The position numbers and the translations under genes were made by a program. Below, piece after piece: positions 25,840 through 53,886 of a DNA stretch of 64,000 bases. Source of the DNA: Chitinophagaceae bacterium 26-R-25 (lineage in GTDB: Bacteria > Bacteroidota > Bacteroidia > Chitinophagales > Chitinophagaceae); the NCBI GenBank assembly GCA_029906195.1, contig JARWSJ010000003.1, positions 620,001 through 684,000 of the forward strand. Reading direction: 5' to 3'. How positions within the stretch are numbered: the stretch's first letter is position 1; every line of letters starts with the position of its first letter. The notes beneath the pieces are model-generated. The model worked only from the letters and a program-made list of their open reading frames with translations, did not search any database and was not told the origin of the DNA.

Positions 25840-26096
25840 ATTGAAAATTGAAAGTTGAAAATTGAAAATGCTTTGAGTCAATCAGACTGTTTCATTCGCT
25901 CTGCGAAGCTTCTAGCTTCGCAGGTGTATTCTATCGCCTCCGGCGATGCTTGGAATGATTGCCAAAGGCAATGAAATGTAGCTGCAAGGCTACAAACCTT
26001 GCAAAGCAGAAAAAGTTGAAAATTGAAAATGCTTTGAGTCAATCAGACTGTTTCATCTGAAGCATTTTCAATTTTCAACCTTCAATTTTCAATTAA
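25840..26096. repeat. Family B palindrome, copy 2, interrupted by a family C element
   Basis: The family B left arm begins at 25840 and the right arm ends at 26096 (TTCAATTTTCAATTA). A 110-bp family C element sits at 25898-26007. On either side of C is an exact 45-bp direct repeat (25851-25895 and 26012-26056) of part of the B arm and B loop. Without C and one repeat copy, the sequence would be a normal B element like that at 16791-16884. Confidence 0.9.
25898..26007. repeat. Family C four-hairpin element, copy 1
   Basis: Four hairpins lie in a row: GCGAAGC/GCTTCGC, ATCGCC/GGCGAT, ATTGCC/GGCAAT and GCAAGG/CCTTGC. The second copy (53681-53786) has the same order. Three base pairs differ between the copies by changes on both sides of a stem: two in hairpin 1 and one in hairpin 2. 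No coding frame is present. Confidence 0.9.
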
Positions 26097-27497
26097 CTAC
26101 TTCGCTCCCGCCGCCTGCATCACAGCCGGCTTAATATTCTGATTTACTCTAAACAAATTATTCGGATCGTACTTTGCTTTTATCATGGCGAGCCTGTCGT
26201 AATTGTCTTTGTAAGTAGCCCTGATTCTGTCCTGGCCTTCATCCATCATAAAATTGATGTAAGCGCCACCTGCAGAATATGGGTGAAGCGCTTCCCAATA
26301 GTCTTTGGTCCATTTTGTTACCAGGTCCCTGTTTGCCGGATCAGGGTCAACACCCACAATCACCTGCGCCCAGGTGGCATCACGATAGCTCCATGGAGTT
26401 TCATCATTTTTTATTCTGCCAGCAGCACCGTTTACCGGATACATATGCATGGTGGACCACATTGTTGGCATTTCGCTACCATATTTGATGTGCTCATCAA
26501 TAGCTTTGTCATTTAACTCATTCATATAGTCAGCACGCCAGTACCACTGGTAGCCCGGCACATACAAAGCGTCAAACATGCCCTGCAAAGCAGGATGAGG
26601 AATAGGGCCTACAAAATCCAATGCAATATTTCCAAGATTGCGAATAGGTTCAAATACTTTCTCTGCTTTATCCAGCGGACCAGCATAAGCCCACACGATG
26701 CCGCACATTTTTTTATTATGTAAATTTTCAGGGAACGGAGGGCCTGGAGGAACAGTAAGAAAAGCAAAGAAACCGTTGAGTTCATCAGGAGCAGTTGTAA
26801 TAAAATCACGGTACCATTTCATTATCCGTTTGCTCTCGCTGAGTTCCCAAAGCATTGGTCCAGCATATAAAGTATCCACATTGTGAAGCCTGAACAGGAA
26901 TGAAGTAACTACGCCAAAATTGCCACCGCCGCCACGAAGCGCCCAAAACAAATCTTCATTATTTTTTTCGTTCGCTGTAACGCAAGAGCCATCTGCCAGC
27001 ACAACATCTGCCTCTAATAAGTTGTCAATTGTCAATCCGCATTTCCGGGTGAGGTGGCCCAGACCGCCACCGAGCGTAAGTCCACCAACTCCGGTAGTTG
27101 AAATGATACCACTTGGTGTAGCAAGTCCAAACGCATGTGTAGCGTGGTCAACGTCCGCCCATGTACTACCGCCGCCCACACGTACCGTTTTCGCAACCGG
27201 GTCAACATGGGCATAGCGGATGCCTGAAAGGGCAATGACCAATCCATCATCACAAACACCTAATCCACCACCATTGTGGCCTCCGCCACGAACGGCGAGT
27301 AAAATTTTGTTTTCTCTTGCATAGTTTACGCAGGCAATTACATCCGCCACATCATTGCATTTTGCAATGGCGGCAGGCTTTTTGTCGATCATGCCATTGT
27401 AAACCTTACGGGCAAGATTATAGTTTGCATCGGTGGGTTCAATAAGCTCACCGCGCAGCATTCCTCTTAGCTGCTGAAAATTATTTTCCTGAGCCAT
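26097..27497 (-). CDS. FAD-binding oxidoreductase with berberine-bridge-type C-terminus
   Basis: This 466-residue flavoprotein of the PCMH/VAO class has the FAD domain stretch ARENKILLAVRGGGHNGGG; His74 there is the usual covalent 8-alpha-histidyl flavin site. Then come TTGVGGLTLGGGLGHLTRKCGL and LLEADVVLADG. The C-terminal BBE motif is YINFMMDEGQDRIRATYKDNYDRLAMIKAKYDPNNLFRVNQNI. The second covalent Cys of bicovalent enzymes (in a C-P-T-V-G-V-G-G context) is absent: the matching stretch is I-S-T-T-G-V-G-G. There is no signal peptide. The substrate, perhaps a sugar or aromatic alcohol, cannot be told. It has an unusually strong Shine-Dalgarno sequence. Confidence 0.88.
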   Translation of the reverse strand: MAQENNFQQLRGMLRGELIEPTDANYNLARKVYNGMIDKKPAAIAKCNDVADVIACVNYARENKILLAVRGGGHNGGGLGVCDDGLVIALSGIRYAHVDPVAKTVRVGGGSTWADVDHATHAFGLATPSGIISTTGVGGLTLGGGLGHLTRKCGLTIDNLLEADVVLADGSCVTANEKNNEDLFWALRGGGGNFGVVTSFLFRLHNVDTLYAGPMLWELSESKRIMKWYRDFITTAPDELNGFFAFLTVPPGPPFPENLHNKKMCGIVWAYAGPLDKAEKVFEPIRNLGNIALDFVGPIPHPALQGMFDALYVPGYQWYWRADYMNELNDKAIDEHIKYGSEMPTMWSTMHMYPVNGAAGRIKNDETPWSYRDATWAQVIVGVDPDPANRDLVTKWTKDYWEALHPYSAGGAYINFMMDEGQDRIRATYKDNYDRLAMIKAKYDPNNLFRVNQNIKPAVMQAAGAK

Positions 27498-27502
27498 AGG
27501 TT

Positions 27503-27509
27503 CCTCCTT
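27503..27509 (-). promoter_or_regulatory. Strong Shine-Dalgarno sequence (AAGGAGG)
   Basis: On the minus strand AAGGAGG lies 5 bp before the ATG of the FAD oxidoreductase. Few or no other genes in this window have such a site, in keeping with the general weakness of Shine-Dalgarno use in Bacteroidota. Confidence 0.75.
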
Positions 27510-27758
27510 TTATTGATGTTTAAAAAAATGAATGAGGATAAAAGGATTCAGTAAATCAATTGTTTTTTGAGGGGGATTGGAGTCGATGAGATGACGGGGT
27601 TATTTCCGAAGATTTTACATTATTTCCAGAAGAATAAAATTACAACAATTCCGGACAAATCAAACCCGAATTGGATTGCCCGGATATTAGGAATTAGAAG
27701 TTAGGAATTGGGAATTTAATGTCGTTTAGTTAAGCTGTTTGAAAAATTAAGGGCATGT

Positions 27759-27856
27759 CGCTTGTCATCCGGACGAAGGAGGGATCTGAGCCTAACACTA
27801 GCGCACACTATGCGTTAACAATCACGCAGATCACTCCTTCGTCGGGATGACAAGCG
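27759..27856. repeat. Family F palindromic repeat, copy 1
   Basis: The left arm (CGCTTGTCATCCGGACGAAG and on to 27788) and the right arm (27827-27856) are inverted copies around a 38-nt spacer. A related element is at 50301-50392. ATCCC-GACGAAGGAGGGATCT type palindromes are known from many bacterial genomes. Confidence 0.85.
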
Positions 27857-27988
27857 TTCTTTTCTAACGGATCACAACCACCATTCCGTTCAAAAATCCT
27901 TAACTATGCGACATTGAGTAAGGAATTAGGAATTGGGGGAACCCCTACCGTGCATCCGTTTCTATTCATTTGCGACTGGGTCAAAAAA

Positions 27989-28025
27989 TCCGTGTAAATC
28001 TGCTAAATCTGTGTCATCTGTGTGC
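27989..28025. repeat. Family O repeat, copy 1
   Basis: The stretch runs from TCCGTGTAAATCTGCTAAAT to CTGTGTCATCTGTGTGC. A related copy is at 59141-59179 (ending CTGTGTCATCTGTGAGCC). It lies just after the hemW gene; the second copy lies just before the GH43 gene. Confidence 0.65.
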
Positions 28026-28036
28026 TTTTTCACTTC

Positions 28037-29164
28037 TCAAACCGCGAACAAATCCGCGGCGATACCATCTGCAAACAGCTTCCCCTCATGTGTTAAGCGG
28101 ATGAAATTATCATGAAAAACAGCCTTGCCCGCAACCACGAATTTTTGAATTCCTGCGACGATGTCAGTAGCAGATTTTTCACCAAAATGATTTTTCACCA
28201 TTGTAACATCAATCCCTTCACTGGTGCGTAAAGCAGTCATGATATATTCATTCAATTGCTGGGTGGGCGTAAGCGTTTCGCCTTCGAAGAAGTTATCGCC
28301 TTCTGCAATTTTTTTAATGTACAAAGGATTGTTGGCAATGTTCCACTGGCGCGAAACGCCATCAAAAGAATGTGCAGACGGCCCAACGCCAAGATATTTT
28401 TCACCGCGCCAGTAAGAAGAATTGTGCTGGCTCCTGAACCCTTTTTTTGCAAAATTGGAAATTTCGTAGTGCTCGAAACCCGCATCCGAGAGCCATTTCA
28501 TCAAATCGAGAAACTGTTGCGATTGCAAATCCTGGTTAACGTCCTGCAGTTTCTTTTGCTCGATCATTTTTTCCAGCGCTGTTTTAGGTTCCACCGTCAG
28601 TGCATAGCAGGAGAGATGTGGAATGTTCAAATCAATGGCAGTTTGCACATTTTGTTGCCATTTTTCATTCGTAAGCGTTGGTGTTCCGTAAATAAGGTCA
28701 ATTGTAATATTGTGTATGCCCGCTTCCTGTGCCAGCAAAATGGATTGCCTTGCCTGTGTTGCATTGTGGGCCCTGTTCATCCATTGAAGGTCCTCTTCAA
28801 AAAAAGATTGTATGCCAATGCTCAGTCTGTTTATTCCTGCATTTTTCCAAACTTGTAAACTTTCGGCATTGATGTCATCCGGATTTGTTTCCAGCGTTAT
28901 TTCAATGTTGTCGTTGATAGAAAAATTTTCATACAGCGCAGTAAAAATCCTGTTCAACTCCTCTGCAGACAACAGGCTTGGCGTGCCACCACCAAAATAG
29001 ATCGTGTTTATTTTTTCGTCAGCAAGATATGCTTTGCGCAATGCTATTTCCTTTACAATCGCATCGACAAACGCCGGCTTCAGTTGCAGCGATGTAGAGA
29101 AATGAAAATTACAATAATGACAGGCTTTCTTACAAAAAGGAATGTGAATATAAATGCCTGCCAT
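28037..29164 (-). CDS. hemW: Radical SAM heme chaperone HemW
   Basis: This 375-residue protein starts AGIYIHIPFCKKACHYCNFHFS with the radical SAM C-x3-C-x2-C cluster motif. It then has TIYFGGGTPSLLSAEELNRI, ITLETNPDDI and NRLSIGIQSFFEEDLQWMNRAH, the usual HemN/HemW core. The length, the lack of the N-terminal extension of HemN, and the motif HNSSYWRGEKYLGVGPSAHSF favour HemW, which binds and delivers heme, over coproporphyrinogen dehydrogenase. Start ATG at 29164. It is a single gene flanked by repeats. Another heme gene, hemD, is 3.2 kb away in a different unit. Confidence 0.92.
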   Translation of the reverse strand: MAGIYIHIPFCKKACHYCNFHFSTSLQLKPAFVDAIVKEIALRKAYLADEKINTIYFGGGTPSLLSAEELNRIFTALYENFSINDNIEITLETNPDDINAESLQVWKNAGINRLSIGIQSFFEEDLQWMNRAHNATQARQSILLAQEAGIHNITIDLIYGTPTLTNEKWQQNVQTAIDLNIPHLSCYALTVEPKTALEKMIEQKKLQDVNQDLQSQQFLDLMKWLSDAGFEHYEISNFAKKGFRSQHNSSYWRGEKYLGVGPSAHSFDGVSRQWNIANNPLYIKKIAEGDNFFEGETLTPTQQLNEYIMTALRTSEGIDVTMVKNHFGEKSATDIVAGIQKFVVAGKAVFHDNFIRLTHEGKLFADGIAADLFAV

Positions 29165-29199
29165 GCGAATTTTTTTTTGAATATTACAGTTTAATTTAG

Positions 29200-29358
29200 A
29201 AAGTTGTTAGTTATTCGCAGTCGCCAGCAGCCGGTAACCGGTAGCCAGTGTTTCTGTGAAACAAACCTGATTAATTTTGACAGCTAGTTAACAATAGAAG
29301 TGATGCCGCTGGCTACTGGCCACCGGCTACAGGGATCGTTTCTAACAACTAACAACTC
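29200..29358. repeat. Family G palindromic repeat, copy 1
   Basis: The left arm (29200-29250) and right arm (29308-29358) are imperfect inverted repeats of about 50 bp made of heptamers. The outer ones are near TTGTTAG and the inner ones near CGGTAAC/CGGTAGC. The right arm ends 11 bp before the BamA-like start codon. A second copy is at 42726-42863. Confidence 0.85.
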
Positions 29359-29368
29359 CTCAAAAAGC

Positions 29369-31153
29369 ATGGCAAAGGTACAAGGTTATATTAACATCAT
29401 TCTGCTGGCGGTTTCCGTAATGGCATGTTGCTCCGCACAGGCGCAGTATGTGTTGCGCATTGTGCCCGTAGACAGGGATGAAAATATAATCAAATCGCTG
29501 CGTTTGCAGGAAAGCTTTGCCAGTCGCCAGCTTTGCGTGGATTATGTCAATCAGCTTCCACAAAAGCTACAGGAGAAAGGCTATCCCGCCGCTTCTGTCG
29601 ATAGTTTGCATCTGGATTCAACGTTTGCCACCATCCATCTATTTCTCGGCGAGCGCTATCAACTCGCATATGTTGACATTACTTCCGTCGATGCAAAAAT
29701 GATGGATCAGATCGGATGGAACTCAAAACTGTATTTCAACAAACCTTTAAACATTACACAACTTCAGCAACTAGAGCAAAGAATACTTGACTATTTCGAG
29801 AACAACGGACACCCTTTTGCCAAAGTGCAACTCGACAGTGTGGGTTATGAAGAAAGTAAGTTTTACGCTAGCCTTAAAGTAGACAAGGGCCCATTGTACA
29901 AGATCGACAGCATTCGGGTATATGGCAACGTGAAGATATCCAGCAATTTCCTGCAGCGTTACCTGGGTATTTTAAATGGTAGTCCATACTCGAAATCAAC
30001 ACTTCAAAAGATCAGTACAAGATTGCGCGAGTTGCCATTCTTACAGGAAGAAAAAGGCTGGGATATGACAATGGTAAGCGCAGGCGCCGTAGTTAACCTT
30101 TACCTGAAGCCCAAAAAGGCAAGCCAGATCAATGCATTGATTGGACTGCAGCCGTCAAGCGATCAGAATGATAATAAACTGCTGGTGACCGGCGAAGCCA
30201 ACATCAACTTACGCAACGCTTTGGGATCGGGTGAAACAATAGGCTTGAACTGGCAACAATTGCAGGTAAAGTCGCCAAGGCTCAATCTCGCCTATCAGCA
30301 GCCGTTCATTTTTAAAAGTCCGTTTGGACTAAACCTTGGGTTTGATCTGCTGAAAAAAGACTCTTCCTATGTCAATATTAATTTTGTGCTGGGCGTTCAA
30401 TATGCATTCTCCGCATCGCAAACAGGGAGGGTGTTTTTCCAAAGCTTCAGGACAAATCTGCTGGACCTGGACACCAATGCCATCAAAGAAAGTAAAACAC
30501 TACCCAACGAAATAGACGAAACCATCAACAATCTTGGGATTGACTACGAACTGTTCAGGACTAACTATCGCTTCAATCCGCGAAAAGGAAATGAATTGCA
30601 TCTTTTGCTAACTGCCGGCACAAGGACCATCCGCAAGAACAACAGTATTGTAAAACTCAGCAGTCCCGATTTCTCCTATGAGTCATTATACGACACCGTT
30701 AAGCTAAACAGCTATCAGTTTAAGATCAAGATAGATGCCGCGCATTTCTTTCCTATTCAAAGCAGCTCTACGCTAAAATTAGGCGCAAATATCGGCTGGC
30801 TGCAAAGCCCGTCCATTTACAGGAATGAATTGTTCCAGATTGGTGGTTACAAATTGCTGCGCGGTTTTGATGAAGAAAGCATTTACGCCTCCCAATACAC
30901 TGTAGGTACCGTAGAGTACAGGTTCCTGATCGGCCTGAATTCTTACCTGTTCTCATTTGTAGATGGTGCCTGGGTAGCCAACAAAAGTATTTACACAAAT
31001 ACCACCAATACTTTCATCGGTGCCGGCCTCGGCCTCGCCTTTGAAACCACCGCCGGCCTTTTCAACATTTCCTTTGCCGCCGGCAAACGCAACGACGTGA
31101 AGTTTAATGCGAGGCAGTCGAAGATACATTTGGGGTATGTAACCTATTTCTAG
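29369..31153 (+). CDS. BamA/TamA family outer-membrane protein
   Basis: This 594-residue protein has a signal peptide (KVQGYINIILLAVSVMACCSAQAQ), then POTRA-like segments at about 25-240 (YQLAYVDITSVDAKMM, LYKIDSIRVYGNVKISSNFLQRYLG). A C-terminal 16-strand barrel of the Omp85 type carries ELFQIGGYKLLRGFDEESIYASQ, the conserved R-G-F/Y motif of the L6 loop. Such proteins insert or move proteins across the outer membrane. It is shorter than BamA (usually about 800 or more residues), so a TamA-like or lineage-specific role is more likely. The start at 29369 was chosen for the signal peptide; the upstream frame lies in a family G repeat. Confidence 0.88.
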   Translation: MAKVQGYINIILLAVSVMACCSAQAQYVLRIVPVDRDENIIKSLRLQESFASRQLCVDYVNQLPQKLQEKGYPAASVDSLHLDSTFATIHLFLGERYQLAYVDITSVDAKMMDQIGWNSKLYFNKPLNITQLQQLEQRILDYFENNGHPFAKVQLDSVGYEESKFYASLKVDKGPLYKIDSIRVYGNVKISSNFLQRYLGILNGSPYSKSTLQKISTRLRELPFLQEEKGWDMTMVSAGAVVNLYLKPKKASQINALIGLQPSSDQNDNKLLVTGEANINLRNALGSGETIGLNWQQLQVKSPRLNLAYQQPFIFKSPFGLNLGFDLLKKDSSYVNINFVLGVQYAFSASQTGRVFFQSFRTNLLDLDTNAIKESKTLPNEIDETINNLGIDYELFRTNYRFNPRKGNELHLLLTAGTRTIRKNNSIVKLSSPDFSYESLYDTVKLNSYQFKIKIDAAHFFPIQSSSTLKLGANIGWLQSPSIYRNELFQIGGYKLLRGFDEESIYASQYTVGTVEYRFLIGLNSYLFSFVDGAWVANKSIYTNTTNTFIGAGLGLAFETTAGLFNISFAAGKRNDVKFNARQSKIHLGYVTYF

Positions 31154-31156
31154 AAT

Positions 31157-31295
31157 AATTAATAATTAATAATTAAAAATTAATAAGACTGCGTTTTTGA
31201 TTGAATGTAACATCGCTGGCTTTTTTAAAATAAAGAGTTGTTTTCTTCGTTTAGAAGGCTGCGCCCATTAATTCTTAATTATTAATTATTAATTA
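31157..31295. repeat. Family H palindromic repeat
   Basis: The left arm at 31157-31188 (tandem TAATTAA heptamers) and right arm at 31267-31295 are inverted copies around a 78-nt spacer. It sits between the BamA-like gene and the DUF4271 gene. Confidence 0.85.
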
Positions 31296-31307
31296 CACCC
31301 CGCACCT

Positions 31308-31315
31308 TATTTTTG
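31308..31315 (+). promoter_or_regulatory. -7 element (TATTTTTG) for the DUF4271-hemD operon
   Basis: TATTTTTG fits TAnnTTTG and lies 20 bp before the GTG start of the DUF4271 gene. It begins 12 bp after the family H right arm, so the -33 region is inside the repeat. Confidence 0.5.
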
Positions 31316-31335
31316 TAAACAACCAATCAGTTTTT

Positions 31336-32364
31336 GTGAAATATTTTTTACTACTGTTTTTTGTCCTGTGTTCGTTTATCCAAAAAACTGCTGCCCAAAG
31401 TGGAAATGATTCTGCGGTATCTCCGGCGCCCCCGCCGCAGGAGCAAGTTGTTGATACGCCTAAGCCCGTTGTAAAAAAAGCACCAAAGCCGGCAGTAAAG
31501 AAGCCGGTATTAGATTCAGCGAAAAGGGCAGAACTGCTGCTAAAAAAAGATTCCACCCGACCAGTAAAAGATTCAATTGCACCAATAGTAAACACTGTTG
31601 AGGCAGAGAAAGACACTGTTTATTTCAATTATGGTGGTGTGCTCACGCAAAACCGGTATTATAATTTTACCGGGAATCCCGTTTTGCCGAGGATCCAGGT
31701 AAAACATCACGATCATAAGGAAGATGAATTTTACCTGCTGTTACTAATCATACTTTTCTTCGCGCTCGTAAGAGTCGTTTTTGCGAAATACATGCAGAAT
31801 TTATTTACGGTCATGTTCAGGGCTTCCTTAAAACAGAAACAAATTAGGGAACAGTTATCGCAAACGCCATTACCGTCATTGCTGTTAAATATCTTTTTTG
31901 TGCTCGTTGCGGGTAGTTTTGCGGCTTTTCTGTTGAGATATTACAATGAATTCACGGAAGTTAATTTCTGGCTGCTTGTTTTTTACTCTTCGGTAGTAAT
32001 AAGTCTCGTCTATTTACTGAAATTCCTTGTGTTGAAGTTTACAGGTTGGGTATTTAATCTGAAAGCCGCGGCAAATACCTATATTTTTATTGTCTTCCTC
32101 ATCAACAAATTGCTGGCACTTTTCCTGCTGCCCCTCGTAATATTAATCGCTTTTCAAAGCGCAGAAGCAGATATTTGGGTCACAATTTCATATATCCTCA
32201 TCGTTAGTGCGCTGGTTTATAGATACCTAGCGTCTTTCGGGCCAATTAGAAGCGAAATAAAAGTGAAACAGATTCACTTTTTTCTTTACCTTTGCGCATT
32301 CGAGATAGCACCTCTTTTGCTGATTTACAAGGTGTTGTTGAATTTTTTTGATAAAACAGTATAA
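31336..32364 (+). CDS. DUF4271 domain-containing membrane protein
   Basis: This 342-residue protein has a GTG start, a signal peptide (KYFLLLFFVLCSFIQKTAAQ) and a proline/lysine-rich stretch (about 30-75, with PKPVVKKAPKPAVKKP). The C-terminal two thirds have about seven membrane segments, beginning EFYLLLLIILFFALVRVVFAKY, typical of DUF4271. In Bacteroidota this family is commonly encoded just before a uroporphyrinogen-III synthase gene, as here (18-bp gap). Function is unknown. The link to hemD suggests a role in, or shared regulation with, heme synthesis. Confidence 0.85.
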   Translation: MKYFLLLFFVLCSFIQKTAAQSGNDSAVSPAPPPQEQVVDTPKPVVKKAPKPAVKKPVLDSAKRAELLLKKDSTRPVKDSIAPIVNTVEAEKDTVYFNYGGVLTQNRYYNFTGNPVLPRIQVKHHDHKEDEFYLLLLIILFFALVRVVFAKYMQNLFTVMFRASLKQKQIREQLSQTPLPSLLLNIFFVLVAGSFAAFLLRYYNEFTEVNFWLLVFYSSVVISLVYLLKFLVLKFTGWVFNLKAAANTYIFIVFLINKLLALFLLPLVILIAFQSAEADIWVTISYILIVSALVYRYLASFGPIRSEIKVKQIHFFLYLCAFEIAPLLLIYKVLLNFFDKTV

Positions 32365-32382
32365 TTTTAGCTAAACCATAGC

Positions 32383-33189
32383 ATGCGTCATATGGTAAAA
32401 AACGGTGGCAAGGCAGCTACATCTGCGAAAACTGTTCAGAAGATTTTAATCACCCAACCCAGGCCGGAAACTGAGAAGTCTCCTTATTTCGAATTGGAAA
32501 GGAAATTTAATGTGGAGTTAGACTTCGTGCCATTTATTGTGTTAGAAGGCATTCCGGCAAAAGATTTCCGTAAGCAGAAAATTGACATTGCAGCGTATAC
32601 GGGGGTGATCTTTACGAGCCGTAACGCAATTGATCACTTTTTCAGGATCTGCGAGGAAATGAAGGTGAACGTATCACAGGACACAAAATACTTCTGTATA
32701 ACTGAGGCTGTGGCTTTGTATTTGCAAAAATTTATATTGTACCGTAAAAGAAAGGTCTTTTATGGTGCAGATGGTACAAATAAAAGCCTGTTTGATGTTA
32801 TAAACAAGCACAAGGAAAACGAGAAGTTTTTGTACCCATGTTCCGAGAACCAACAGGATAATGAAATTGTGGGTTGGCTGAAAGCTAATAAGTGCGAGTT
32901 TGCTACGCCATTTATGTACCGGACTATTAGCAGCGATGTTAAGGAAGTCCTGACGAAAACAGAGTATGATATCATTTGCTTTTTCACACCAAGCGGCGTA
33001 AAAAGTCTATTTGATAACTTACCAAAATACAAACAGAACGGTACCAAGATAGGTGCGTTTGGTAGCAATACGTACAAAGCAATTGAAGAAGCCGGTCTGG
33101 AGCTTCACATTAAAGCACCACAACCACAGGCCCCTTCAATGGTCGCAGCACTGGATATGTATTTGAGATCCATCAAAGCAGAAAAATAA
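32383..33189 (+). CDS. hemD: Uroporphyrinogen-III synthase
   Basis: This 268-residue protein should cyclise hydroxymethylbilane to uroporphyrinogen III. It has the two-lobe HemD pattern: KILITQPRPETEKSPYFELERKF, then GVIFTSRNAIDHFFRICEEMKV, and the second lobe FLYPCSENQQDNEIVGWLKANKCEF, YDIICFFTPSGVKSLF, KIGAFGSNTYKAIEEAGLELHIKAP. The motif FTPSGVKSLF and the final A-F-G-S-x-T are characteristic. Sequence identity is usually low in this family, but motif order and the DUF4271 neighbour support it. A terminator follows. Confidence 0.88.
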   Translation: MRHMVKNGGKAATSAKTVQKILITQPRPETEKSPYFELERKFNVELDFVPFIVLEGIPAKDFRKQKIDIAAYTGVIFTSRNAIDHFFRICEEMKVNVSQDTKYFCITEAVALYLQKFILYRKRKVFYGADGTNKSLFDVINKHKENEKFLYPCSENQQDNEIVGWLKANKCEFATPFMYRTISSDVKEVLTKTEYDIICFFTPSGVKSLFDNLPKYKQNGTKIGAFGSNTYKAIEEAGLELHIKAPQPQAPSMVAALDMYLRSIKAEK

Positions 33190-33210
33190 AGTCTTCTGAT
33201 AAAAGAAACT

Positions 33211-46909: not shown

Positions 46910-46912
46910 AAC

Positions 46913-47019
46913 AGGAATTAGGAATTTGAAATTAGGAATTAGAAAAGTGCAAGAGTTAGGAATTACAGATTAGCTGAGGTTGCCCAAACTAATTTCTAAT
47001 TCCTAACTCCTAATTCCTA
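46913..47019. repeat. Family L palindromic repeat between zwf and pgl
   Basis: The left arm at 46913-46942 (heptamers AGGAATT, TGAAATT) and right arm at 46989-47019 are inverted copies. The right arm overlaps the zwf stop codon at 47017-47019. It can form a long AT-rich hairpin in the operon mRNA. Confidence 0.88.
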
Positions 47020-48537
47020 CTCCTTGTGTGGAGCTGGCAATGTCACCCAATTTCTTCCGTCGCGGGCGATCAGTGCTTCTGCATCTTCAGGTCCCCATGA
47101 ACCCGGAGCGTAGTTAGGGAAGTCAACGGGTTGTCTTGCAGCCCATGTATCCTGAATAGGTTTGATAATTTCCCATGAAGCCTGCACCTGGTCTGAACGC
47201 ATGAATAAAGTGGCATTGCCTTCCATTACATCCAGCAACAATGTTTCATAAGCTTCGGGTTCGTGCTCTTCGTATGCATCGTTGTAGTTGAAGATCATGT
47301 CAACAGGTTTCAACGTCATATCCTGGCCGGGACGTTTTGCCTGGAAACGCAGACGGATATCCATGTCCGGAGCGATGCTAATCGTAAGACGGTTTGGTCT
47401 CCACGTGTCAGCCGCTTCTGCCGGGAACGCATAGTTAGGAGCAGGACGGAACTGAACAGTAACCATCGTTGTTTTTTCGTGCATGCGTTTACCCGTACGC
47501 ACATAGAACGGAACACCCTGCCAACGCCAGTTATCAATATAAAATTTAACCGCCGCAAAAGTGTCAGTTTGAGAATTCGGGTCCACGCTTTTTTCCTGCG
47601 GATAGCCAGGAACTTTATCGCCCTGCATCCAGCCGTCGGCGTATTGTCCGCGAACAGCATAGCGGTGAACGTCTTCTGTGTTTATTTTTCTGATGGCATT
47701 CAAAACGTCCACTTTTTTATTGCGGATCTCATCTGCTTCAAAGCTTACAGGAGCTTCCATTGCCACCATGCAAAGTATTTGCAGGATGTGGTTTTGCACC
47801 ATGTCTCTCAATGCACCAGCTCTTTCATAGTAATCTCCACGACCCTCAACGCCTACTGTTTCAGAAGCGGTGATCTGTACGTGATCGATATAGTTTCTGT
47901 TCCAGATTGGCTCGAACAATGCATTCGCAAAACGCATCGCCAGGATGTTCTGAACAGTTTCTTTGCCTAGATAGTGGTCAATGCGGTAGATCTGTTTTTC
48001 GTCGAACATGCTTGCGAGCAACTTGTTCAATTCAAGCGCACTTTCAAGGTCGTGACCAAATGGTTTTTCTACCACCACTCTTGTGCATTTTGTATCAGCA
48101 CAGATATTTAGTGGTCCCAGTTTGCTCACGATGCCCGGCACCAATTGCGGCGCCACGGCGAGATAGAAAATTACATTCGGGTGCTCACCGAATTCTTTTT
48201 CTTTTTGTTTTACGATCTCCGCGATTTTCTGATACTCCGCATCTTGCTCAGCATCCATTTGCAGATAGCTAACATATTGAGAGAAATCCTGCCATTTACC
48301 GGCACCGGTTTCCCCTTCTTTTCTTCTACTGAATTGCTGAACACCGTTCAATAAATGTTTGCGGTAATCCTCGTTGTTATAAGGACGACGACCAATACCT
48401 ACGATCGAAAATTTTGCAGGCATCCATTCGTCAATAAAAAGATTGTATAAAGCAGGTGATAATTTTCTGAAATTTAAGTCGCCACTTCCTCCGAATATGA
48501 ATATGAGTGAAGATGCCGGACGTTTATGATTTTGCAT
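47017..48537 (-). CDS. zwf: Glucose-6-phosphate 1-dehydrogenase
   Basis: This 506-residue protein oxidises glucose 6-phosphate with NADP, the first step of the oxidative pentose phosphate pathway. The nucleotide-binding start is LIFIFGGSGDLNFRKLSPALYNL (G-G-S/T-G-D-L). The catalytic motif RIDHYLGKETVQNILAMRFAN (D-H-Y-L-G-K-E) and the substrate region VEGRGDYYERAGALRDMVQNH are intact. Length is typical. It is the middle gene of gnd-zwf-pgl. Confidence 0.97.
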   Translation of the reverse strand: MQNHKRPASSLIFIFGGSGDLNFRKLSPALYNLFIDEWMPAKFSIVGIGRRPYNNEDYRKHLLNGVQQFSRRKEGETGAGKWQDFSQYVSYLQMDAEQDAEYQKIAEIVKQKEKEFGEHPNVIFYLAVAPQLVPGIVSKLGPLNICADTKCTRVVVEKPFGHDLESALELNKLLASMFDEKQIYRIDHYLGKETVQNILAMRFANALFEPIWNRNYIDHVQITASETVGVEGRGDYYERAGALRDMVQNHILQILCMVAMEAPVSFEADEIRNKKVDVLNAIRKINTEDVHRYAVRGQYADGWMQGDKVPGYPQEKSVDPNSQTDTFAAVKFYIDNWRWQGVPFYVRTGKRMHEKTTMVTVQFRPAPNYAFPAEAADTWRPNRLTISIAPDMDIRLRFQAKRPGQDMTLKPVDMIFNYNDAYEEHEPEAYETLLLDVMEGNATLFMRSDQVQASWEIIKPIQDTWAARQPVDFPNYAPGSWGPEDAEALIARDGRNWVTLPAPHKE

Positions 48538-48565
48538 AATGGTTTTTGTTCTTGGTTAATAACTG

Positions 48566-48649
48566 AAGTCAAAAGTTAAAATTCAAAAGTCAAAATCTGA
48601 AAGCCGCAACAGAGGCTCTTTTTACTTTTTATTTTTGCCTTTTTACTTA
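48566..48649. repeat. Family M palindromic repeat between gnd and zwf
   Basis: The left arm (48566-48603, heptamers AAGTCAA, AAGTTAA, AATTCAA) and right arm (48618-48649) are inverted, imperfect copies with a 14-nt spacer. The right arm includes the gnd stop codon (TAA at 48647-48649). Confidence 0.85.
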
Positions 48650-50059
48650 CTTGCCCCATTCAGTATGGAATTTACCCGGCTCATCTACACGCTCGTATGT
48701 ATGTGCGCCAAAGTAGTCGCGTTGTGCCTGCAACAGGTTTGTTGGTAATCTGTCTGAAGTGTAAGCATCAATGTAGCTCAATACTGTCATCAAACCACTT
48801 GCTGCGTAACCATTCAAGGCTGCTTTAGAAACAACATTGCGAAGGTTCGCGAGTTTGCCTGTAAGCAAATCTGCGATTTCTTTATCCAGTAAAATGTTTG
48901 AAATTTTTTCGTTGCGGCTGTAAACGCTTGCAAACACTTCCAACAAAGATGAACGGATGATACAGCCACCGCGCCATACACGCACCACTTCTTTCATTGG
49001 AATTTCCATTTTCCATTCAGTAGAAGCTTTGGTCAGCAATTCCAGACCCTGTGCATAACTGATCAACATGCCGATGAACATTGCATCATGCAGTTGTTTA
49101 ATGAATTCTTCTTTTTCAGGGAAAGCTTTTTCAGAAGGTTTGTACAAAGCAGATGCTTGTACACGTTCTTCTTTCAAAGCGGAAATGTTGCGCATGGTTA
49201 CCGCCATATCGATAGATGGGATCGGAACACCAATTTCCATTGCATCTTGCGATGTCCATTTACCGGTACCTTTTGCACCTGCTTTATCGAGGATCATGTC
49301 AACCAATCGATTGTTGGTCTTATCATCTTTTTGCAGGAAAATATCGGCAGTAATTTCTATGAGGAATGACTGCAAATCACCGGCGTTCCAGTCAGCGAAC
49401 ACTTTGTGCATTTCGTCATTTGTAAGGCCAAGGCCTTTGTGCAGCATTTCATAAATTTCAGTGGTCAGCTGCATGATGGAGTACTCGATGCCGTTGTGCA
49501 CCATCTTCACATAGTGGCCGGCAGCGTCTCTACCGAGGTGGGCCACGCAAGGAACACCATTTACCTTAGCCGCAACAGCTTCCAGCATAGGTTTTACAAC
49601 TGGATAAGCTACAGGATCGCCACCCGGCATGATGCTTGGGCCGGTTCTTGCACCTTGCTCACCACCCGAAACGCCCATTCCGATGAAATGGATCTTTTTA
49701 TCTTCCAGGTATTTTACGCGACGAAGCGTGTCAGTATAATGAGAATTACCCCCGTCAATAATAATGTCACCCGGCTGAACAAGCGGTAAAAGATCTTCAA
49801 TAACGTCATCTACAGGTTTGCCGGCGGGAACCAGCATCATGATCTTTCGCGGAATTTCCAGTAAATCGATCATTTCCTTTAGCGTACCAACGCCCTTCAC
49901 AGTTGTGCCCGGGGTGGCCGAAGATTCCAATGCAGATGTTTTTTGACTGTCTTTATCAAAGCCTATCACTTTGAACTTGTTGTCTGCCATATTGAGCAGG
50001 AAATTTCTGCCCATTACACCCAGACCAATCATGCCGAAGTTAAATTGAGGAGTACTCAT
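48647..50059 (-). CDS. gnd: 6-phosphogluconate dehydrogenase, decarboxylating
   Basis: This 470-residue protein converts 6-phosphogluconate to ribulose 5-phosphate and CO2 with NADP. The N-terminal FGMIGLGVMGRNFLLNMADNKFKVIGFDKD is the Rossmann motif. Substrate and catalytic stretches are IIIDGGNSHYTDTLRR, GMGVSGGEQGARTGPSIMPGG and HYVKMVHNGIEYSIMQL, with the K-M-V-H-N-G-I-E-Y signature. Length fits the long homodimeric form. It is the promoter-proximal gene of gnd-zwf-pgl. Confidence 0.97.
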   Translation of the reverse strand: MSTPQFNFGMIGLGVMGRNFLLNMADNKFKVIGFDKDSQKTSALESSATPGTTVKGVGTLKEMIDLLEIPRKIMMLVPAGKPVDDVIEDLLPLVQPGDIIIDGGNSHYTDTLRRVKYLEDKKIHFIGMGVSGGEQGARTGPSIMPGGDPVAYPVVKPMLEAVAAKVNGVPCVAHLGRDAAGHYVKMVHNGIEYSIMQLTTEIYEMLHKGLGLTNDEMHKVFADWNAGDLQSFLIEITADIFLQKDDKTNNRLVDMILDKAGAKGTGKWTSQDAMEIGVPIPSIDMAVTMRNISALKEERVQASALYKPSEKAFPEKEEFIKQLHDAMFIGMLISYAQGLELLTKASTEWKMEIPMKEVVRVWRGGCIIRSSLLEVFASVYSRNEKISNILLDKEIADLLTGKLANLRNVVSKAALNGYAASGLMTVLSYIDAYTSDRLPTNLLQAQRDYFGAHTYERVDEPGKFHTEWGK

Positions 50060-50300
50060 GGTTTGTTTTATAAGTGTGTAAGAGTTTGCAATTTAAGCAA
50101 TTTGAGAAAGTGGAAAGTAGAAAATGTTGCGCTGATCATGGTTTTTGAAACGAGAGATCAACAATGAAGAAACGTATAAGGTCCATGGAAAGCCTTTGCT
50201 GGCGGGAATTTCCTGACAGTATAAGAGGTTTCGCAATCGTTTACGTGAATGATGGTGTGTGGCTATTTGCTTAAAGTGTACGTAAAAACAAACGACTGTT

Positions 50301-50392
50301 GCTTGTCATCCCGAGAAACGAGGGGATCTGGGTGATACACAAACAACATGATTAAGCAAGACTAAGATCCCTCGTTCCTCGGGATGACAAGC
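50301..50392. repeat. Family F palindromic repeat, copy 2
   Basis: The left arm (50301-50329, GCTTGTCATCCCGAGAAACG onward) and right arm (50365-50392, ending TCGGGATGACAAGC) are inverted copies with a 35-nt spacer. The outer bases match copy 1 at 27759-27856; the inner stem bases differ between the copies. Confidence 0.88.
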
Positions 50393-50537
50393 GGTCTTCC
50401 TGCCGATTGTAAGCGGCAACTATTGACTTACGTTTAGCAAATACCCTTATCGGAAAGGGCTCAAAATCAACCCATTCGCGTTTCGCCAATCGCCCTTCAC
50501 GAACCTTTTGCCGTTCCGAAGCGTTGTAAATGAGAAT

Positions 50538-50601
50538 GGTAACATTTTTTTAATATTTGACGTCATATTCAATGTCAATTCTATATTAAGAAATTGTTAC
50601 C
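50538..50601. promoter_or_regulatory. Inverted repeat upstream of the PhoU-like/phosphate transporter operon
   Basis: GGTAACATTTTTTTAATAT (50538-50556) and ATATTAAGAAATTGTTACC (50583-50601) pair with 16 of 19 matches. Between them TTGAC and GTCAA flank two GTCA motifs spaced 12 bp apart. It ends 36 bp before the -7 element at 50637, a position suited to a regulator site. Any tie to phosphate control is a guess. Confidence 0.5.
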
Positions 50602-50636
50602 AACTGAATTTGTGAGTATAGCCTGATCAATAACTT

Positions 50637-50644
50637 TATTTTTG
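50637..50644 (+). promoter_or_regulatory. -7 element (TATTTTTG) for the DUF47-pit operon
   Basis: TATTTTTG fits TAnnTTTG and lies 14 bp before the ATG. A TTTG at 50609-50612 is 24 bp upstream, slightly longer spacing than the usual 19-21. Confidence 0.5.
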
Positions 50645-50658
50645 CGCAAATTTTATAT

Positions 50659-51306
50659 ATGGGCCTCAACTCAGTAATGAAAATTTTTATGCCGAAGGAC
50701 AAAGTATTTTACTCTTTGTTCGAAGAAGTGGCAGTGACCGTAGCCCAAATGGGAAAGTTGTTAAAGACGATCGTAGCCGAGCCGGATTTTGACAAAAGGG
50801 CCGCTTATATTTCCCGTATGGAAGACATGGAGCACATCAATGATGACTTCACGCACAAAATTTTCACCGAACTCGGAAGAAACTTTATCACTCCGTTTGA
50901 CAGGGAAGATATCCACTATCTTGCCAGCTCACTGGATGATATTGCTGACTATATTTTCTCCGCAGCTAAAAAGATCAATTTTTACAAAGTAAATCCTAAC
51001 GATCCCGGCATTCAAAAAATGGCCGACCTGATCGACCAGGGTGCAGAGCACATTAAAAATGCTGTACACGAACTGCGTGACATGAAAAACATGCGCCAGA
51101 TCACTGATGCACTTGTAAAAGTAAATAGCATCGAAAACCAGGCTGATGACATCTACGACTTAAGCATCGATCGCCTTTTCGAAACAGAACCAGACGCGAA
51201 AGAGGTTATTAAGAAAAGAGAAATTTACCAGGTATTGGAAACAGTAACTGATAAATGCGAAGACGCTGCAAACGTTATCGAATCAATCATTATTAAATAC
51301 GCTTAA
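50659..51306 (+). CDS. DUF47 family PhoU-like protein
   Basis: This 215-residue all-helical protein is of the DUF47/PhoU-like family: KDKVFYSLFEEVAVTVAQMGKLL, INDDFTHKIFTELGRNFITPFDREDIHYLASSLDDIADYIFSAAKKI, and VNSIENQADDIYDLSIDRLFE. The D-R-E-D-I and E-N-x-A-D-D motifs are the metal-binding signatures of PhoU-type bundles. These proteins commonly precede low-affinity phosphate transporters and probably regulate them. The transporter gene follows after 42 bp. Confidence 0.93.
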   Translation: MGLNSVMKIFMPKDKVFYSLFEEVAVTVAQMGKLLKTIVAEPDFDKRAAYISRMEDMEHINDDFTHKIFTELGRNFITPFDREDIHYLASSLDDIADYIFSAAKKINFYKVNPNDPGIQKMADLIDQGAEHIKNAVHELRDMKNMRQITDALVKVNSIENQADDIYDLSIDRLFETEPDAKEVIKKREIYQVLETVTDKCEDAANVIESIIIKYA

Positions 51307-51348
51307 TCCCGATTGAAGTTTTCGAACTTCTAATTTTAAGTTTGACCC

Positions 51349-52386
51349 ATGACATTTTTAGTCGTCATTATAATCCTGGCACTGGTATTTGATTACATAA
51401 ACGGTTTTCATGATGCTGCCAACTCTATTGCCACGATCGTTTCTACTAAAGTTTTAACCCCTTTCCAGGCTGTATTGTGGGCCGCGTTCTTTAACTTCCT
51501 GGCCTTTTTTGTATCAAAATACATTATTGGAGAGTTTAAAATAGGTAATACTATAGCAAACTCGGTGCATGCAGACTTCATTAACCTCAAAGTAATATTT
51601 GCCGGTCTTGTAGCTGCTATTCTATGGAACCTGCTTACATGGTGGTTTGGTATTCCATCAAGCTCTTCACATACTTTGCTGGGCGGTTTTATGGGGGCGG
51701 CTGTGGCACATGCGAAAGCATTGCACGTGAACGGAGTAGATGTGATCAACTACGTAAAAGTGCTCCCTATTTTCCTGTTCATATTACTTGCCCCATTAAT
51801 TGGTATGATCATAGCGTTTATCATAACGGTGATCATTGTAAATATTTGCCGAAAAGTTGCACCGCACAAAGCCGAAAAATGGTTCAAACGCCTTCAGCTT
51901 GTTTCATCCGCATTGCTAAGCCTTGCGCACGGTGGCAACGATGCTCAGAAAGTAATGGGTATCATTGGCGCTGCGATCATTTTCTACGACAAAACACAAG
52001 GTATAAACCTGACTTTCAATGAATTTGTAAACCATTATATGTGGGTTCCGCTGGCAAGCTTTACGGCAATCGCCCTGGGAACAATGAGCGGTGGTTGGAA
52101 GATCATTAAAACAATGGGAACACGTATCACCAAAGTGAACTCATTGGAAGGTGTAAGTGCCGAAACTGCCGGTGCCATTACGTTGTACGTAACCGAGCAT
52201 TTGGGTATTCCTGTAAGTACCACGCATACCATCACCGGTGCGATCATTGGGGTGGGTGCCACAAAGCGTTTATCTGCCGTACGATGGGGGGTAACGATCA
52301 ACCTCCTCTGGGCCTGGATATTAACCATCCCCGTGAGTGCGATCATAGCAGCCGTCGTCTACTACATAACATCGATATTTATTTAA
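51349..52386 (+). CDS. pit: Inorganic phosphate transporter, PitA family
   Basis: This 345-residue inner-membrane protein has two halves, each with the PHO4/PiT signature: DYINGFHDAANSIATIVSTKVLTPFQA near the N-terminus and LLSLAHGGNDAQKVMGIIGAAI in the second half. It also has WWFGIPSSSSHTLLGGFMGAA and HLGIPVSTTHTITGAIIGVGATKR. It imports phosphate with a cation. The DUF47 partner upstream supports the assignment. A good terminator follows. Confidence 0.95.
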   Translation: MTFLVVIIILALVFDYINGFHDAANSIATIVSTKVLTPFQAVLWAAFFNFLAFFVSKYIIGEFKIGNTIANSVHADFINLKVIFAGLVAAILWNLLTWWFGIPSSSSHTLLGGFMGAAVAHAKALHVNGVDVINYVKVLPIFLFILLAPLIGMIIAFIITVIIVNICRKVAPHKAEKWFKRLQLVSSALLSLAHGGNDAQKVMGIIGAAIIFYDKTQGINLTFNEFVNHYMWVPLASFTAIALGTMSGGWKIIKTMGTRITKVNSLEGVSAETAGAITLYVTEHLGIPVSTTHTITGAIIGVGATKRLSAVRWGVTINLLWAWILTIPVSAIIAAVVYYITSIFI

Positions 52387-52393
52387 ATAAAAG

Positions 52394-52419
52394 AACCCTG
52401 GCAATCGCCGGGGTTTTTT
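52394..52419 (+). terminator. Rho-independent terminator after pit
   Basis: AACCCTGGC and GCCGGGGTT pair (one T-G pair) around AATC, followed by a T run. Confidence 0.88.
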
Positions 52420-52422
52420 ATT

Positions 52423-52520
52423 AGCTGAATAACTGAATAACCGAATAACTGAATGGTTGAAAGTCGACGAGACTGATTGAATATAAACATTCAGTTATTC
52501 AGTTATTCAGTTATTCGGCT
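52423..52520. repeat. Family D palindromic repeat, copy 1
   Basis: The left arm (52423-52454) and right arm (52489-52520) are inverted copies (30 of 32 matches) made of the eight-base unit AACTGAAT. It starts directly after the pit terminator and ends 34 bp before the J-domain gene. Confidence 0.9.
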
Positions 52521-52554
52521 TGTTGCTTTACTTTGTGTTCAGAAGAAATGTACA

Positions 52555-53661
52555 ATGCAAAAGAGTTTAGTCATTAAAGGGAGCCACGCCCAGATAAGCA
52601 AAGCACAACAAGCTTTCAATGGTCTGATTAAGAAAATTGAAAGGCTCCAACATACTATTCAGCAGAATACGCAGCTTTTAGATGAAAAGATGAGGTTTTA
52701 TTATAGTGAAATGTTGAGCCAGGAAAGAGAATTGCTCGAGGCGAAAAAGGAAATTGTAAGAGAGCTGTATAAGGCATTTACGGACAAAACATACAAAGGA
52801 AGAGAAAGGACTTTATTGAAAAGCATTATTACCAGTCACCTGGAAGATATAATGGAAGAAGAAGAGCTGGATGAAGAAATACAAAAGATATTCCGCGGAG
52901 TGAAAAAAATGGATTACCAGGAAATGAAGACGAGAGATTTTGAAATGGAAAAGGAGAAGCTGGAACAGGTTTTTAGTATGTATGGTTTCGATGTGAACAC
53001 TGAAGCCTTCAGGTCTGCTAAATCAAAAGATGATCTGCTGAAAGAATCCTTCAAAATGATGGAGGAGCTTGAAAGGAAAGCAGAGGAACGGAAAAACGAA
53101 AAGCAAGCGGGCAAAAAAACTAAAAAGCAGCTTGCAAAGGAAGTGAACGAACAGCAGAGAGATGAGCTGCGCGGTAAAAATATTGGCAGGGTATACAAAC
53201 AGCTGGCAAAAATATTTCATCCGGATCTGGAACCAGATGCTGCTAAAAAGGTAGTAAAGGAAGAACTGATGAAGCAGTTGACCATCGCTTATGAAAGCAA
53301 GGACCTTCATACATTGTTAAGACTGGAATTAGAATATATCTATAAAGAAGAAAACGATACTGCAAACCTTTCCGAAGAGAAGCTGAAAATTTATAATGAA
53401 GTATTGAAGGAGCAGGTTGCTGAGCTGGAAAGTGAATTACACATGCTGCCTATGCATCCGCAATATTCAGCGCTGCAGGCATTTGTAAAGAAACCGCAAG
53501 ACGTAGTAGAGTTGGATTTACCTAGCAAAAAAATTCTGCGCGACAGCATGCTTCGCAAAATGAAAAAAGCCATTGAAAAGCTAAGAGGTACTGCCAGCGA
53601 GGCTGCGGAGGAGATACAAATAATTTTGAAACAGTTTGAGGGGCGTGAGGAAACTGAATAA
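52555..53661 (+). CDS. Coiled-coil protein with internal J-like domain
   Basis: This 368-residue, highly charged protein (Lys/Glu-rich) is mostly predicted coiled coil. At about 207-260 it has a J-domain-like stretch, IGRVYKQLAKIFHPDLEPD, with the H-P-D triplet at 222-224. A helix with Q-L-T-I-A-Y-E-S-K-D-L-H-T-L-L follows, in place of the usual A-Y-x-x-L. J-domains recruit Hsp70 through H-P-D. There is no signal peptide. The start at 52555 was chosen because the upstream frame is family D repeat. The last codons and the TAA stop lie in the left arm of another family D repeat. The client is unknown. Confidence 0.8.
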   Translation: MQKSLVIKGSHAQISKAQQAFNGLIKKIERLQHTIQQNTQLLDEKMRFYYSEMLSQERELLEAKKEIVRELYKAFTDKTYKGRERTLLKSIITSHLEDIMEEEELDEEIQKIFRGVKKMDYQEMKTRDFEMEKEKLEQVFSMYGFDVNTEAFRSAKSKDDLLKESFKMMEELERKAEERKNEKQAGKKTKKQLAKEVNEQQRDELRGKNIGRVYKQLAKIFHPDLEPDAAKKVVKEELMKQLTIAYESKDLHTLLRLELEYIYKEENDTANLSEEKLKIYNEVLKEQVAELESELHMLPMHPQYSALQAFVKKPQDVVELDLPSKKILRDSMLRKMKKAIEKLRGTASEAAEEIQIILKQFEGREETE

Positions 53662-53886
53662 CTGAGTAACTGAATGTTCCGCTCTGCAAGGCTTGTAGCC
53701 TTGCTGCACTATTCCATCGTCTTTGACGATAACAGTATTGCCAGAGGCAATAAAATAAAACTGCAAGGCTACAAGCCTTGCAGAGCGATAAACTGAATAA
53801 CTGAGTAACTGAATAACTGAATGTTTAAACTCGAAGATGATCTTCGACATTCGAACACTCAGTTATTCAGTTATTCAGTTATTCAG
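53651..53886. repeat. Family D palindrome, copy 2, interrupted by a family C element
   Basis: The eight-base units (AACTGAAT, AACTGAGT) start at 53651 inside the end of the J-domain gene. A family C element occupies 53681-53786. The D arm restarts at 53790, giving an exact 25-bp direct repeat (53651-53675 and 53790-53814). The right arm ends at about 53886. An inner hairpin (TCGAAGATGATCTTCGA) occupies the D loop. Confidence 0.9.
53681..53786. repeat. Family C four-hairpin element, copy 2
   Basis: This 106-bp element has hairpins GCAAGGC/GCCTTGC, ATCGTC/GACGAT, ATTGCC/GGCAAT and GCAAGGC/GCCTTGC. Its first and last 24 bp are perfect inverted repeats of each other, so each end can fold alone or pair with the other end. 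In copy 1 the ends no longer match each other, but the local hairpins are kept. Confidence 0.92.

What the first reader, a model, noticed from the sequence alone, without database searches (positions are those of the whole stretch)
25898..53786. Family C: a four-hairpin element with compensatory base changes
Copies at 25898-26007 and 53681-53786 share four hairpins in the same order. Hairpin 1 is GCGAAGC/GCTTCGC in one and GCAAGGC/GCCTTGC in the other (two double changes). Hairpin 2 is ATCGCC/GGCGAT against ATCGTC/GACGAT (one double change). In copy 1 the two ends no longer pair with each other, but each local hairpin is intact. So local stems seem to be what is kept, as RNA structure or as single-stranded DNA recognised by a mobilising enzyme (for example REP-associated Y1 transposases).
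Basis: seen in the sequence. Interest (0 to 1): 0.8.

Follow-up and report, generated by a model that had tools for sequence, protein, structure and literature searches.

The report
Double-hairpin mobile DNA element in Bacteroidota
The two repeats are copies of a small, probably mobile DNA element made of four hairpins, which looks like the joined two ends of a transposase gene found elsewhere in the same genome; it belongs to a known kind of bacterial repeat but in a form whose anatomy has been described only sketchily.

Summary
The two copies belong to a family with 33 full-length places listed in this genome (list cut) and one four-hairpin fold. Local stems covary: 14 of 34 pairs have double changes, 75 cells against 20.6 in shuffles; the end-to-end palindrome does not exceed shuffles. 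The one intact RAYT gene found (REP-associated tyrosine transposase, NF047646) lies outside the window, between hairpins 1+2 and hairpins 3+4. So each window copy looks like the RAYT unit without its gene. Many, not all, related RAYTs in Bacteroidota have two-hairpin ends with other stem sequences (21 of 30 and 33 of 80 loci). The model matches 19 of 20 genomes of the family with a close RAYT and 1 of 20 without one. Copy 1 is shared by three species; copy 2 is in one only. Best reading: a REPIN/BIME-like non-autonomous element moved as single-stranded DNA by a Bacteroidota RAYT that fits subclass 2.6, whose repeats were called 'atypical secondary structures' in print (PMC6006769, passages). 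Movement by the enzyme is inferred, not shown.

The parts
25897..26008 (-). Copy 1 of the four-hairpin element
   Evidence: conserved at the orthologous place in two sister species
25901..25923 (.). Copy 1 outer hairpin, 10-bp stem CTGCGAAGCT/AGCTTCGCAG, 3-nt loop (hairpin 4 in the register of copy 2)
   Evidence: (I9)
25933..25947 (.). Copy 1 inner hairpin ATCGCC/GGCGAT
25958..25972 (.). Copy 1 inner hairpin ATTGCC/GGCAAT
25982..26004 (.). Copy 1 outer hairpin CTGCAAGGCT/AACCTTGCAA, 8 of 10 pairs
   Evidence: read from the sequence
25851..25895 (.). Left member of a 45-bp identical direct repeat that hugs copy 1
   Evidence: (D1); flanks differ in the two sister species at this place
26012..26056 (.). 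Right member of the 45-bp direct repeat; also the 5' half of the outer palindrome 26012-26094
53680..53787 (+). Copy 2 of the four-hairpin element
   Evidence: absent from the orthologous place in both sister species
53684..53706 (.). Copy 2 hairpin 1 (outer), CTGCAAGGCT/AGCCTTGCTG, 9 of 10 pairs
   Evidence: read from the sequence
53716..53730 (.). Copy 2 hairpin 2 (inner), ATCGTC/GACGAT
53737..53751 (.). Copy 2 hairpin 3 (inner), ATTGCC/GGCAAT
53761..53783 (.). Copy 2 hairpin 4 (outer), CTGCAAGGCT/AGCCTTGCAG
   Evidence: I10
53651..53675 (.). Left member of a 25-bp direct repeat hugging copy 2
   Evidence: the empty site of sister species G109 has one palindrome here
53790..53814 (.). Right member of the 25-bp direct repeat, 5' arm of the outer palindrome 53790-53889
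52423..52527 (.). Neighbouring outer palindrome without an element here; sister species G109 has an element 95% identical to copy 2 in it

Best explanation
The element is a non-autonomous mobile DNA unit: an inverted pair of double-hairpin ends, each resembling a terminus of a RAYT transposase unit, joined without the gene. The one intact RAYT found in the genome, a Y1 HuH enzyme, probably recognises each end as single-stranded DNA by its two neighbouring hairpins (outer stem about 10 bp, linker about 8-9 nt, inner stem about 6-8 bp), cuts near the foot and moves or copies the unit in trans, much as TnpAREP is thought to do for REPINs/BIMEs. Because shape matters more than stem sequence, stems drift by paired changes. 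Shown here: the anatomy, the covariation, the flanked RAYT, the co-occurrence, and copies present in one species but absent from its sisters. Inferred: recognition of the double hairpin, cleavage, and movement in trans.
For: RAYT identity: NF047646 at 106.8 bits, cut-off 80; PF01797 at 30.2, cut-off 23; N63, H64, H66, Y149, N153, P154 invariant in 30 aligned homologues; dN/dS 0.04 against both sister species. The gene's flanks are the two halves of the element. Local covariation, and none of the end-to-end palindrome. Two-hairpin ends by a strict rule: left type upstream of 17 of 30 and right type downstream of 17 of 30 RAYT loci of the family, both in 13, either in 21; control 6 of 319 windows. 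In a wider Bacteroidota set 33 of 80 loci have either type, control 15 of 1661. Model matches in 19 of 20 genomes with a close RAYT against 1 of 20 without a RAYT match at E 1e-10 (Fisher 6e-9); for 14 of those 20 I find listed matches or fetched loci away from the query RAYT (nearness to other RAYT genes of these genomes not excluded). Elements resemble the ends of their own genome's RAYT best in 8 of 14 cases, against about 1.2 expected among 12 genomes. Absent from both sister species: copy 2 and the copy of L007 (filled in G000), and the copy of L085 (filled in G109).
Against: No transposition, excision or circle was seen. The RAYT itself sits at the same place in sister species G009 and does not look mobile. 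Own-RAYT matching fails for 6 of 14 elements; two of the 14 (G242) score identically and one (G213) lies about 600 bases from its RAYT. Nine of the 30 family loci show no two-hairpin end on either side by the strict rule, and the downstream end of this genome's own RAYT fails it too, its outer stem being imperfect; 47 of 80 in the wider set show none. Between orthologues stems break about as often as they are doubly compensated. The RAYT-bearing genomes were chosen for closeness of their RAYT, so kinship is not fully controlled; in several of them the matches that I could place lie beside the RAYT, and some loci read (L148 to L150) look like a single end rather than the four-hairpin doublet.
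Confidence: 0.83

Rival explanations
1. The hairpins are kept at each place because they work in RNA, as transcript-end structures, terminators or stability elements at gene 3' ends; mobility is history only.
For: Of 22 copies (of 28) with predicted genes on both sides, 12 lie between convergent genes, 10 between co-directional genes and none between divergent ones; background of the window and five fetched stretches of the own genome 18, 61 and 18 of 97 (Fisher 0.002 and 0.02). Within orthologous copies stems differ less than the rest of the element: 6.5% against 16.7% (G109) and 9.5% against 21% (G009).
Against: No Rfam family matches. Presence goes with RAYT. Copies come and go between sister species. 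16 of 42 changed stem cells between orthologues are breaks. Known REPs share the avoidance of upstream regions without being conserved RNAs (recalled). No expression data were at hand.
Confidence: 0.1
2. The paired changes are not selected. Short-loop palindromes are mended to perfection by template switching during replication, so stems stay paired by mutation alone. The element may still be mobile.
For: Stems are near-perfect with loops of mostly 3 nt; 11 of 15 orthologous double compensations fall in two loci, as bursts or replacements would.
Against: Stem lengths, linker and order are similar in many Bacteroidota RAYT loci although sequences differ, and the ends bound RAYT genes. The tests used do not separate selection from templated mutation.
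Confidence: 0.25
3. A MITE of some other transposase, by chance near a RAYT in this genome.
For: Terminal inverted repeats, and direct repeats hugging some copies.
Against: The halves bound the RAYT gene in a sister species too and comparable ends bound RAYTs elsewhere; the flanking repeats have no fixed length. Other transposases of the genome were not searched.
Confidence: 0.04

Closest known systems
TnpAREP/RAYT subclass 2.6 of Quentin et al. 2018 (PMC6006769; its table gives Bertels's group 5) and its 'atypical secondary structures'
   Same: Mostly Bacteroidota; median length 179 aa (here 187); NH[LIV]H and YIH[QN]NP motifs; serines in the tail; repeats without GT[AG]G at the gene's flanks and copies elsewhere in the genome (paper passages; protein)
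   Different: The W motif reads WS here instead of WQ. The paper calls the structures atypical and weaker; here they are a defined double hairpin with strong covariation. Its Figure 7 and Table S1 were not available to me.
REPIN / BIME (inverted REP doublet; PMC3116915 passages)
   Same: Inverted pair, intergenic, many copies, a RAYT with related flanking repeats, clusters that include flanks
   Different: Each arm has two hairpins; no GTAG at the foot; in REPINs the two ends are proposed to pair into one long hairpin, here end-to-end pairing shows no covariation
TIRtrons with double palindromic TIRs (PMC3733652, section 16 read whole)
   Same: RAYT-like gene between long inverted repeats, some of which hold two palindromes and have repeat families in the genome
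   Different: The hosts of such genes named in that section are not Bacteroidota as far as I recall their taxonomy (G. forsetii, which is, appears only as encoding tyrosine transposases not flanked by CGTC repeats); Figure 9, which lists them, was not available
IS200/IS605 (IS608, ISDra2)
   Same: Y1 HuH enzyme, subterminal hairpins, single-strand logic
   Different: Gene in one intact copy and syntenic; ends are inverted repeats of each other; the NCBIfam IS200 model stays below its cut-off (24.5 of 55)
MITECca01 of Cardinium (PMC9769881, passages)
   Same: A miniature non-autonomous element in a Bacteroidota genome (that Cardinium belongs there is recalled)
   Different: Derived from an IS982-family element; the main text holds neither the word tyrosine nor hairpin

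Membership tests
RAYT (REP-associated tyrosine transposase) gene in the same genome | Protein passes a curated RAYT model with HuH and catalytic Y | tested here: met
   NF047646 106.8 bits, cut-off 80; NHVH and YIHNNP, with H64, H66, Y149 invariant in 30 aligned homologues
REPIN/BIME | Inverted doublet of a repeat that flanks a RAYT gene, present in many copies | tested here: met
   Halves flank the RAYT; 80 model matches counted on both strands, 33 distinct full-length places in the cut list
REPIN/BIME | Excision or transposition intermediates | not testable with these tools
   No reads available; only presence/absence between species
Canonical REP | GT[AG]G tetranucleotide at the foot of the hairpin | tested here: not met
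   The outer foot reads GCT in 26 of 27 rows with letters and the inner foot ATTCT-like; GTAG occurs in the apex of many hairpin 1 copies but varies (TTTTAG, TTCCAG, TTATAG)
TnpAREP subclass 2.6 | HuH NH[LIV]H, Y motif YIH[QN]NP, Bacteroidota | tested here: met
   Protein against Table 1 as printed; relatives named are Bacteroidota (taxonomy recalled)
TnpAREP subclass 2.6 | WQ motif | tested here: not met
   LWS in this protein; W invariant, next residue varies (S, T, I, E, Q, R) in the 30 homologues
TnpAREP subclass 2.6 | Position in the TnpAY1 tree | not tested
   No reference sequences of the subclass were used
IS200/IS605 | Mobile gene in near-identical copies | tested here: not met
   One intact gene in G000 and a broken one elsewhere; the intact one is syntenic in G009
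Described RNA family | Match above Rfam gathering score | tested here: not met
   Only two cobalamin riboswitches and a tRNA in the window

The most novel reading that the evidence does not exclude
Bacteroidota RAYTs read a two-hairpin address by shape, so each genome's elements drift to a private stem sequence while keeping the architecture; and insertion into loops or arms of tandem-repeat palindromes copies 25-84 bp of the target with it, unlike IS200/IS605 enzymes, which make no target duplication (recalled). Supporting: in 10 of 28 copies the 100-bp flanks share a direct repeat scoring 40 or more, the 95th percentile of 150 mismatched flank pairs, and in 9 of these it lies within 27 bp of both ends; at copy 2 and at L007 sister species G109 has one palindrome where this genome has a second, partial or full one. 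Against: one mismatched pair scored 145, so repeats shared between places inflate the score; at copy 1 the repeat is not seen around the same element in the sister species and so is probably younger than the insertion; and such repeats may come from later array dynamics.
Probability: 0.2. Interest if true: 0.75.

Novelty: new variant of a known kind. Interest (0 to 1): 0.52.

Why it matters
RAYTs are transposases that bacteria keep for long times (recalled; here dN/dS 0.04), and how they recognise their repeats has been worked out for enzymes that need a GTAG tag (PMC8266576 passages). This Bacteroidota group lacks the tag. A defined double-hairpin unit with dozens of natural variants and several empty sites makes its recognition rules directly testable. 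The covariation also bears on an open point about REPINs: here the stems kept are local, not the long end-to-end hairpin.

Tried and rejected
RNA family: no Rfam match for the element. One long hairpin as the kept structure: favoured by energy for copy 2 but without covariation. The second Y1 gene of the genome (C1:1715468, L034): broken frames, and I saw none of these ends in the 1.2 kb that I read around it. Fixed-length target duplication: rejected, lengths vary from 25 to 84 bp and copy 1 contradicts it.

Literature: terms Chitinophaga with 'repetitive extragenic palindromic' gave no paper. Searches listed two papers that I used on Bacteroidota RAYTs or palindromic TIRs (PMC6006769, PMC3733652); PMC9769881 concerns an IS982-derived MITE (passages); PMC10878065 and PMC5704556 were seen in listings only. 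Only open-licence PMC papers were searched, so a description elsewhere is possible. Papers seen: PMC6006769, PMC3116915, PMC8266576 and PMC9769881 in passages, PMC3733652 in passages and section 16.

Structure prediction was not done: its stated rule does not list whole-genome loci; a homologue could have been folded and was not.

Rows dropped: alignment A1 used 28 of 40 places; the other 12 are halves, RAYT ends or weak hits. One search lists five more full-length places (C5:286037, C3:723726, C2:726358, C2:585448, C1:812450) that are not in A1. L048/L050 and L051/L047 lie at contig ends and may be one place each, counted twice. The positive control windows were not inspected.
Full report
What is there. 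The window is G000:C3:620001-684000 of a 6.5 Mb genome in 6 contigs. The two copies lie between convergent genes: copy 1 between an NAD-dependent glycerol-3-phosphate dehydrogenase (24801-25838) and an FAD-binding/BBE protein (26097-27497), copy 2 between two ORFs without a Pfam match. The family consensus is GCTC, an outer hairpin with a 10-bp stem, a linker ending in ATTCT, an inner hairpin, a variable spacer, and the mirror image of this. A DNA search of the own genome with copy 2 gave 79 matches on both strands at E up to 10, the weakest surely chance; a covariance model gave 80 at E up to 0.001, and 33 distinct full-length places can be read from its cut list.

Structure. Twenty-eight full-length copies were aligned. 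For the four local hairpins plus the GCT/AGC ends, 97.5% of 942 cells are standard pairs, 14 of 34 pairs have double changes, and 75 cells show them against 20.6 in shuffles (0 of 500 reach it). Sliding the partners by 1-3 columns drops paired cells to 29-43%. For the end-to-end palindrome, 88.6% of 915 cells pair and 10 cells have double changes against 14.1 in shuffles. RNAalifold found the same four hairpins without being told. Outer stems occur as CTGCAAGGCT, CTCCGAAGCT, CTGCGAGGCT, CTCCGGAGCT and others, and the left and right end of one copy can be of different types. Cells count sequences, not events. In 12 orthologous pairs between species (11 places, one of them compared with both sisters) there are 339 unchanged cells, 15 double compensations, 11 one-sided changes that keep the pair, 14 one-sided breaks, 2 two-sided breaks and 3 gaps; 11 of the 15 compensations sit in two loci. 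Stem sites differ at 6.5% (G109) and 9.5% (G009), other sites of the element at 16.7% and 21% (Fisher 1e-5 and 3e-4).

The enzyme. A Y1_Tnp search of the own genome gave three matches in two places; one place is broken, the other is an intact 187-aa ORF at C1:2605214-2605777. It passes the NCBIfam RAYT model and weakly matches the solved E. coli TnpAREP 4er8 (E 6e-4). On one side of it stand hairpins 1 and 2, on the other hairpins 3 and 4; the outer stem downstream of the gene is imperfect and fails my strict rule. The locus is syntenic in G009, where the hairpin ends are kept while the adjoining flanks have diverged. dN/dS is 0.04 against both sister species. So the window copies look like this unit with the gene deleted.

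Wider spread. The RAYT protein has relatives in 185 of 294 genomes of the family (E at most 1e-10). In the 30 loci fetched for it, a strict two-hairpin rule found the left end in 17, the right end in 17, both in 13, either in 21; 6 of 319 control windows fit. Stem sequences differ between genomes. In 80 loci from named genomes, 33 have either end, among them Flavobacterium, Paludibacter, Lacihabitans, Foetidibacter and Bacteroidales MAGs; control 15 of 1661. The family model matches 19 of 20 genomes with a close RAYT and 1 of 20 genomes without a RAYT match at E 1e-10; that one match (L154) reads like a single left end with a poor inner hairpin. Fourteen of the 20 have listed matches or fetched loci away from the query RAYT; for five of the rest those that I could place lie beside it, and one genome (G278) has none. 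Elements fit their own genome's RAYT ends best in 8 of 14 cases. Some genomes carry a shorter form with three hairpins, the inner pair apparently fused into one (for example L140, L143).

History. Copy 1 lies at the same place in G109 and G009. Copy 2 is missing from both; G109 has an intact outer palindrome there, and instead has its own copy, 95% identical, in the palindrome on the other side of the same gene, where this genome and G009 have none. The copy of L007 is missing from both sisters. L044 is shared with G109 and absent from G009, and a G009 copy (L096) is absent here. Of 28 copies, 22 have predicted genes on both sides; 12 are convergent, 10 co-directional, none divergent. Five lie at contig ends and one overlaps an opposite-strand ORF of about 315 bases that I take as spurious.

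Flanks. In ten of 28 copies the 100-bp flanks share a direct repeat scoring 40 or more, the 95th percentile of 150 mismatched flank pairs (whose maximum was 145); in nine of the ten it lies within 27 bp of both ends, and lengths run from 25 to 84 bp. At copy 1 the sister species have other flanks around the same element, so there the repeat probably arose after insertion.

Known or new. PMC6006769 (passages) puts a mostly Bacteroidota group of RAYTs in subclass 2.6, with repeats lacking GT[AG]G that were found by manual inspection and called atypical and weaker; copies elsewhere in the genome are mentioned. PMC3733652 (section 16) mentions double palindromic TIRs around RAYT-like genes. I did not see the figures. 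What is added here is the defined double-hairpin unit, its strong local covariation, the four-hairpin doublet as the dispersed form, and filled and empty sites. I file it as a new variant of a known kind. Recognition, cutting and spread are inferred by analogy with TnpAREP (PMC8266576 passages) and REPINs (PMC3116915 passages).

Noticed in passing
window 16783-16884, 26012-26094, 52423-52527, 53790-53889: Long palindromes whose arms are tandem 7-8-mers (TTGAAAA-type and CTGAATAA-type), dispersed in the genome and its sisters. Around copy 1 the sister species have arms of another unit (GAGAGTT-type) on both sides, as if both arms changed together.
   Followed up: partly
L043 2111-4411 (G000:C3:46111-48411): Two ORFs (they look like XpaC- and TelA-type proteins, recalled, not searched) lie between two direct copies of the element here; both sister species have one copy and lack the stretch between, so recombination between copies may have removed or added about 2.2 kb.
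   Followed up: partly
G000 contig ends C5:291814, C3:131, C3:800350, C6:83: Copies of the element lie at contig ends, as if the assembly broke there; a G009 locus (L090) joins the C5 end and the C3 start.
   Followed up: partly
L034 about 2300-2790 (G000:C1:1715410-1715755): A second Y1 transposase gene with stop codons and a shifted frame.
   Followed up: no
L140, L143, L159 (other genera of the family): A roughly 87-nt form with three hairpins, as if hairpins 2 and 3 had fused by central deletion.
   Followed up: no
window 12610-12756 (+) and 18965-19151 (-): Two cobalamin riboswitches.
   Followed up: no
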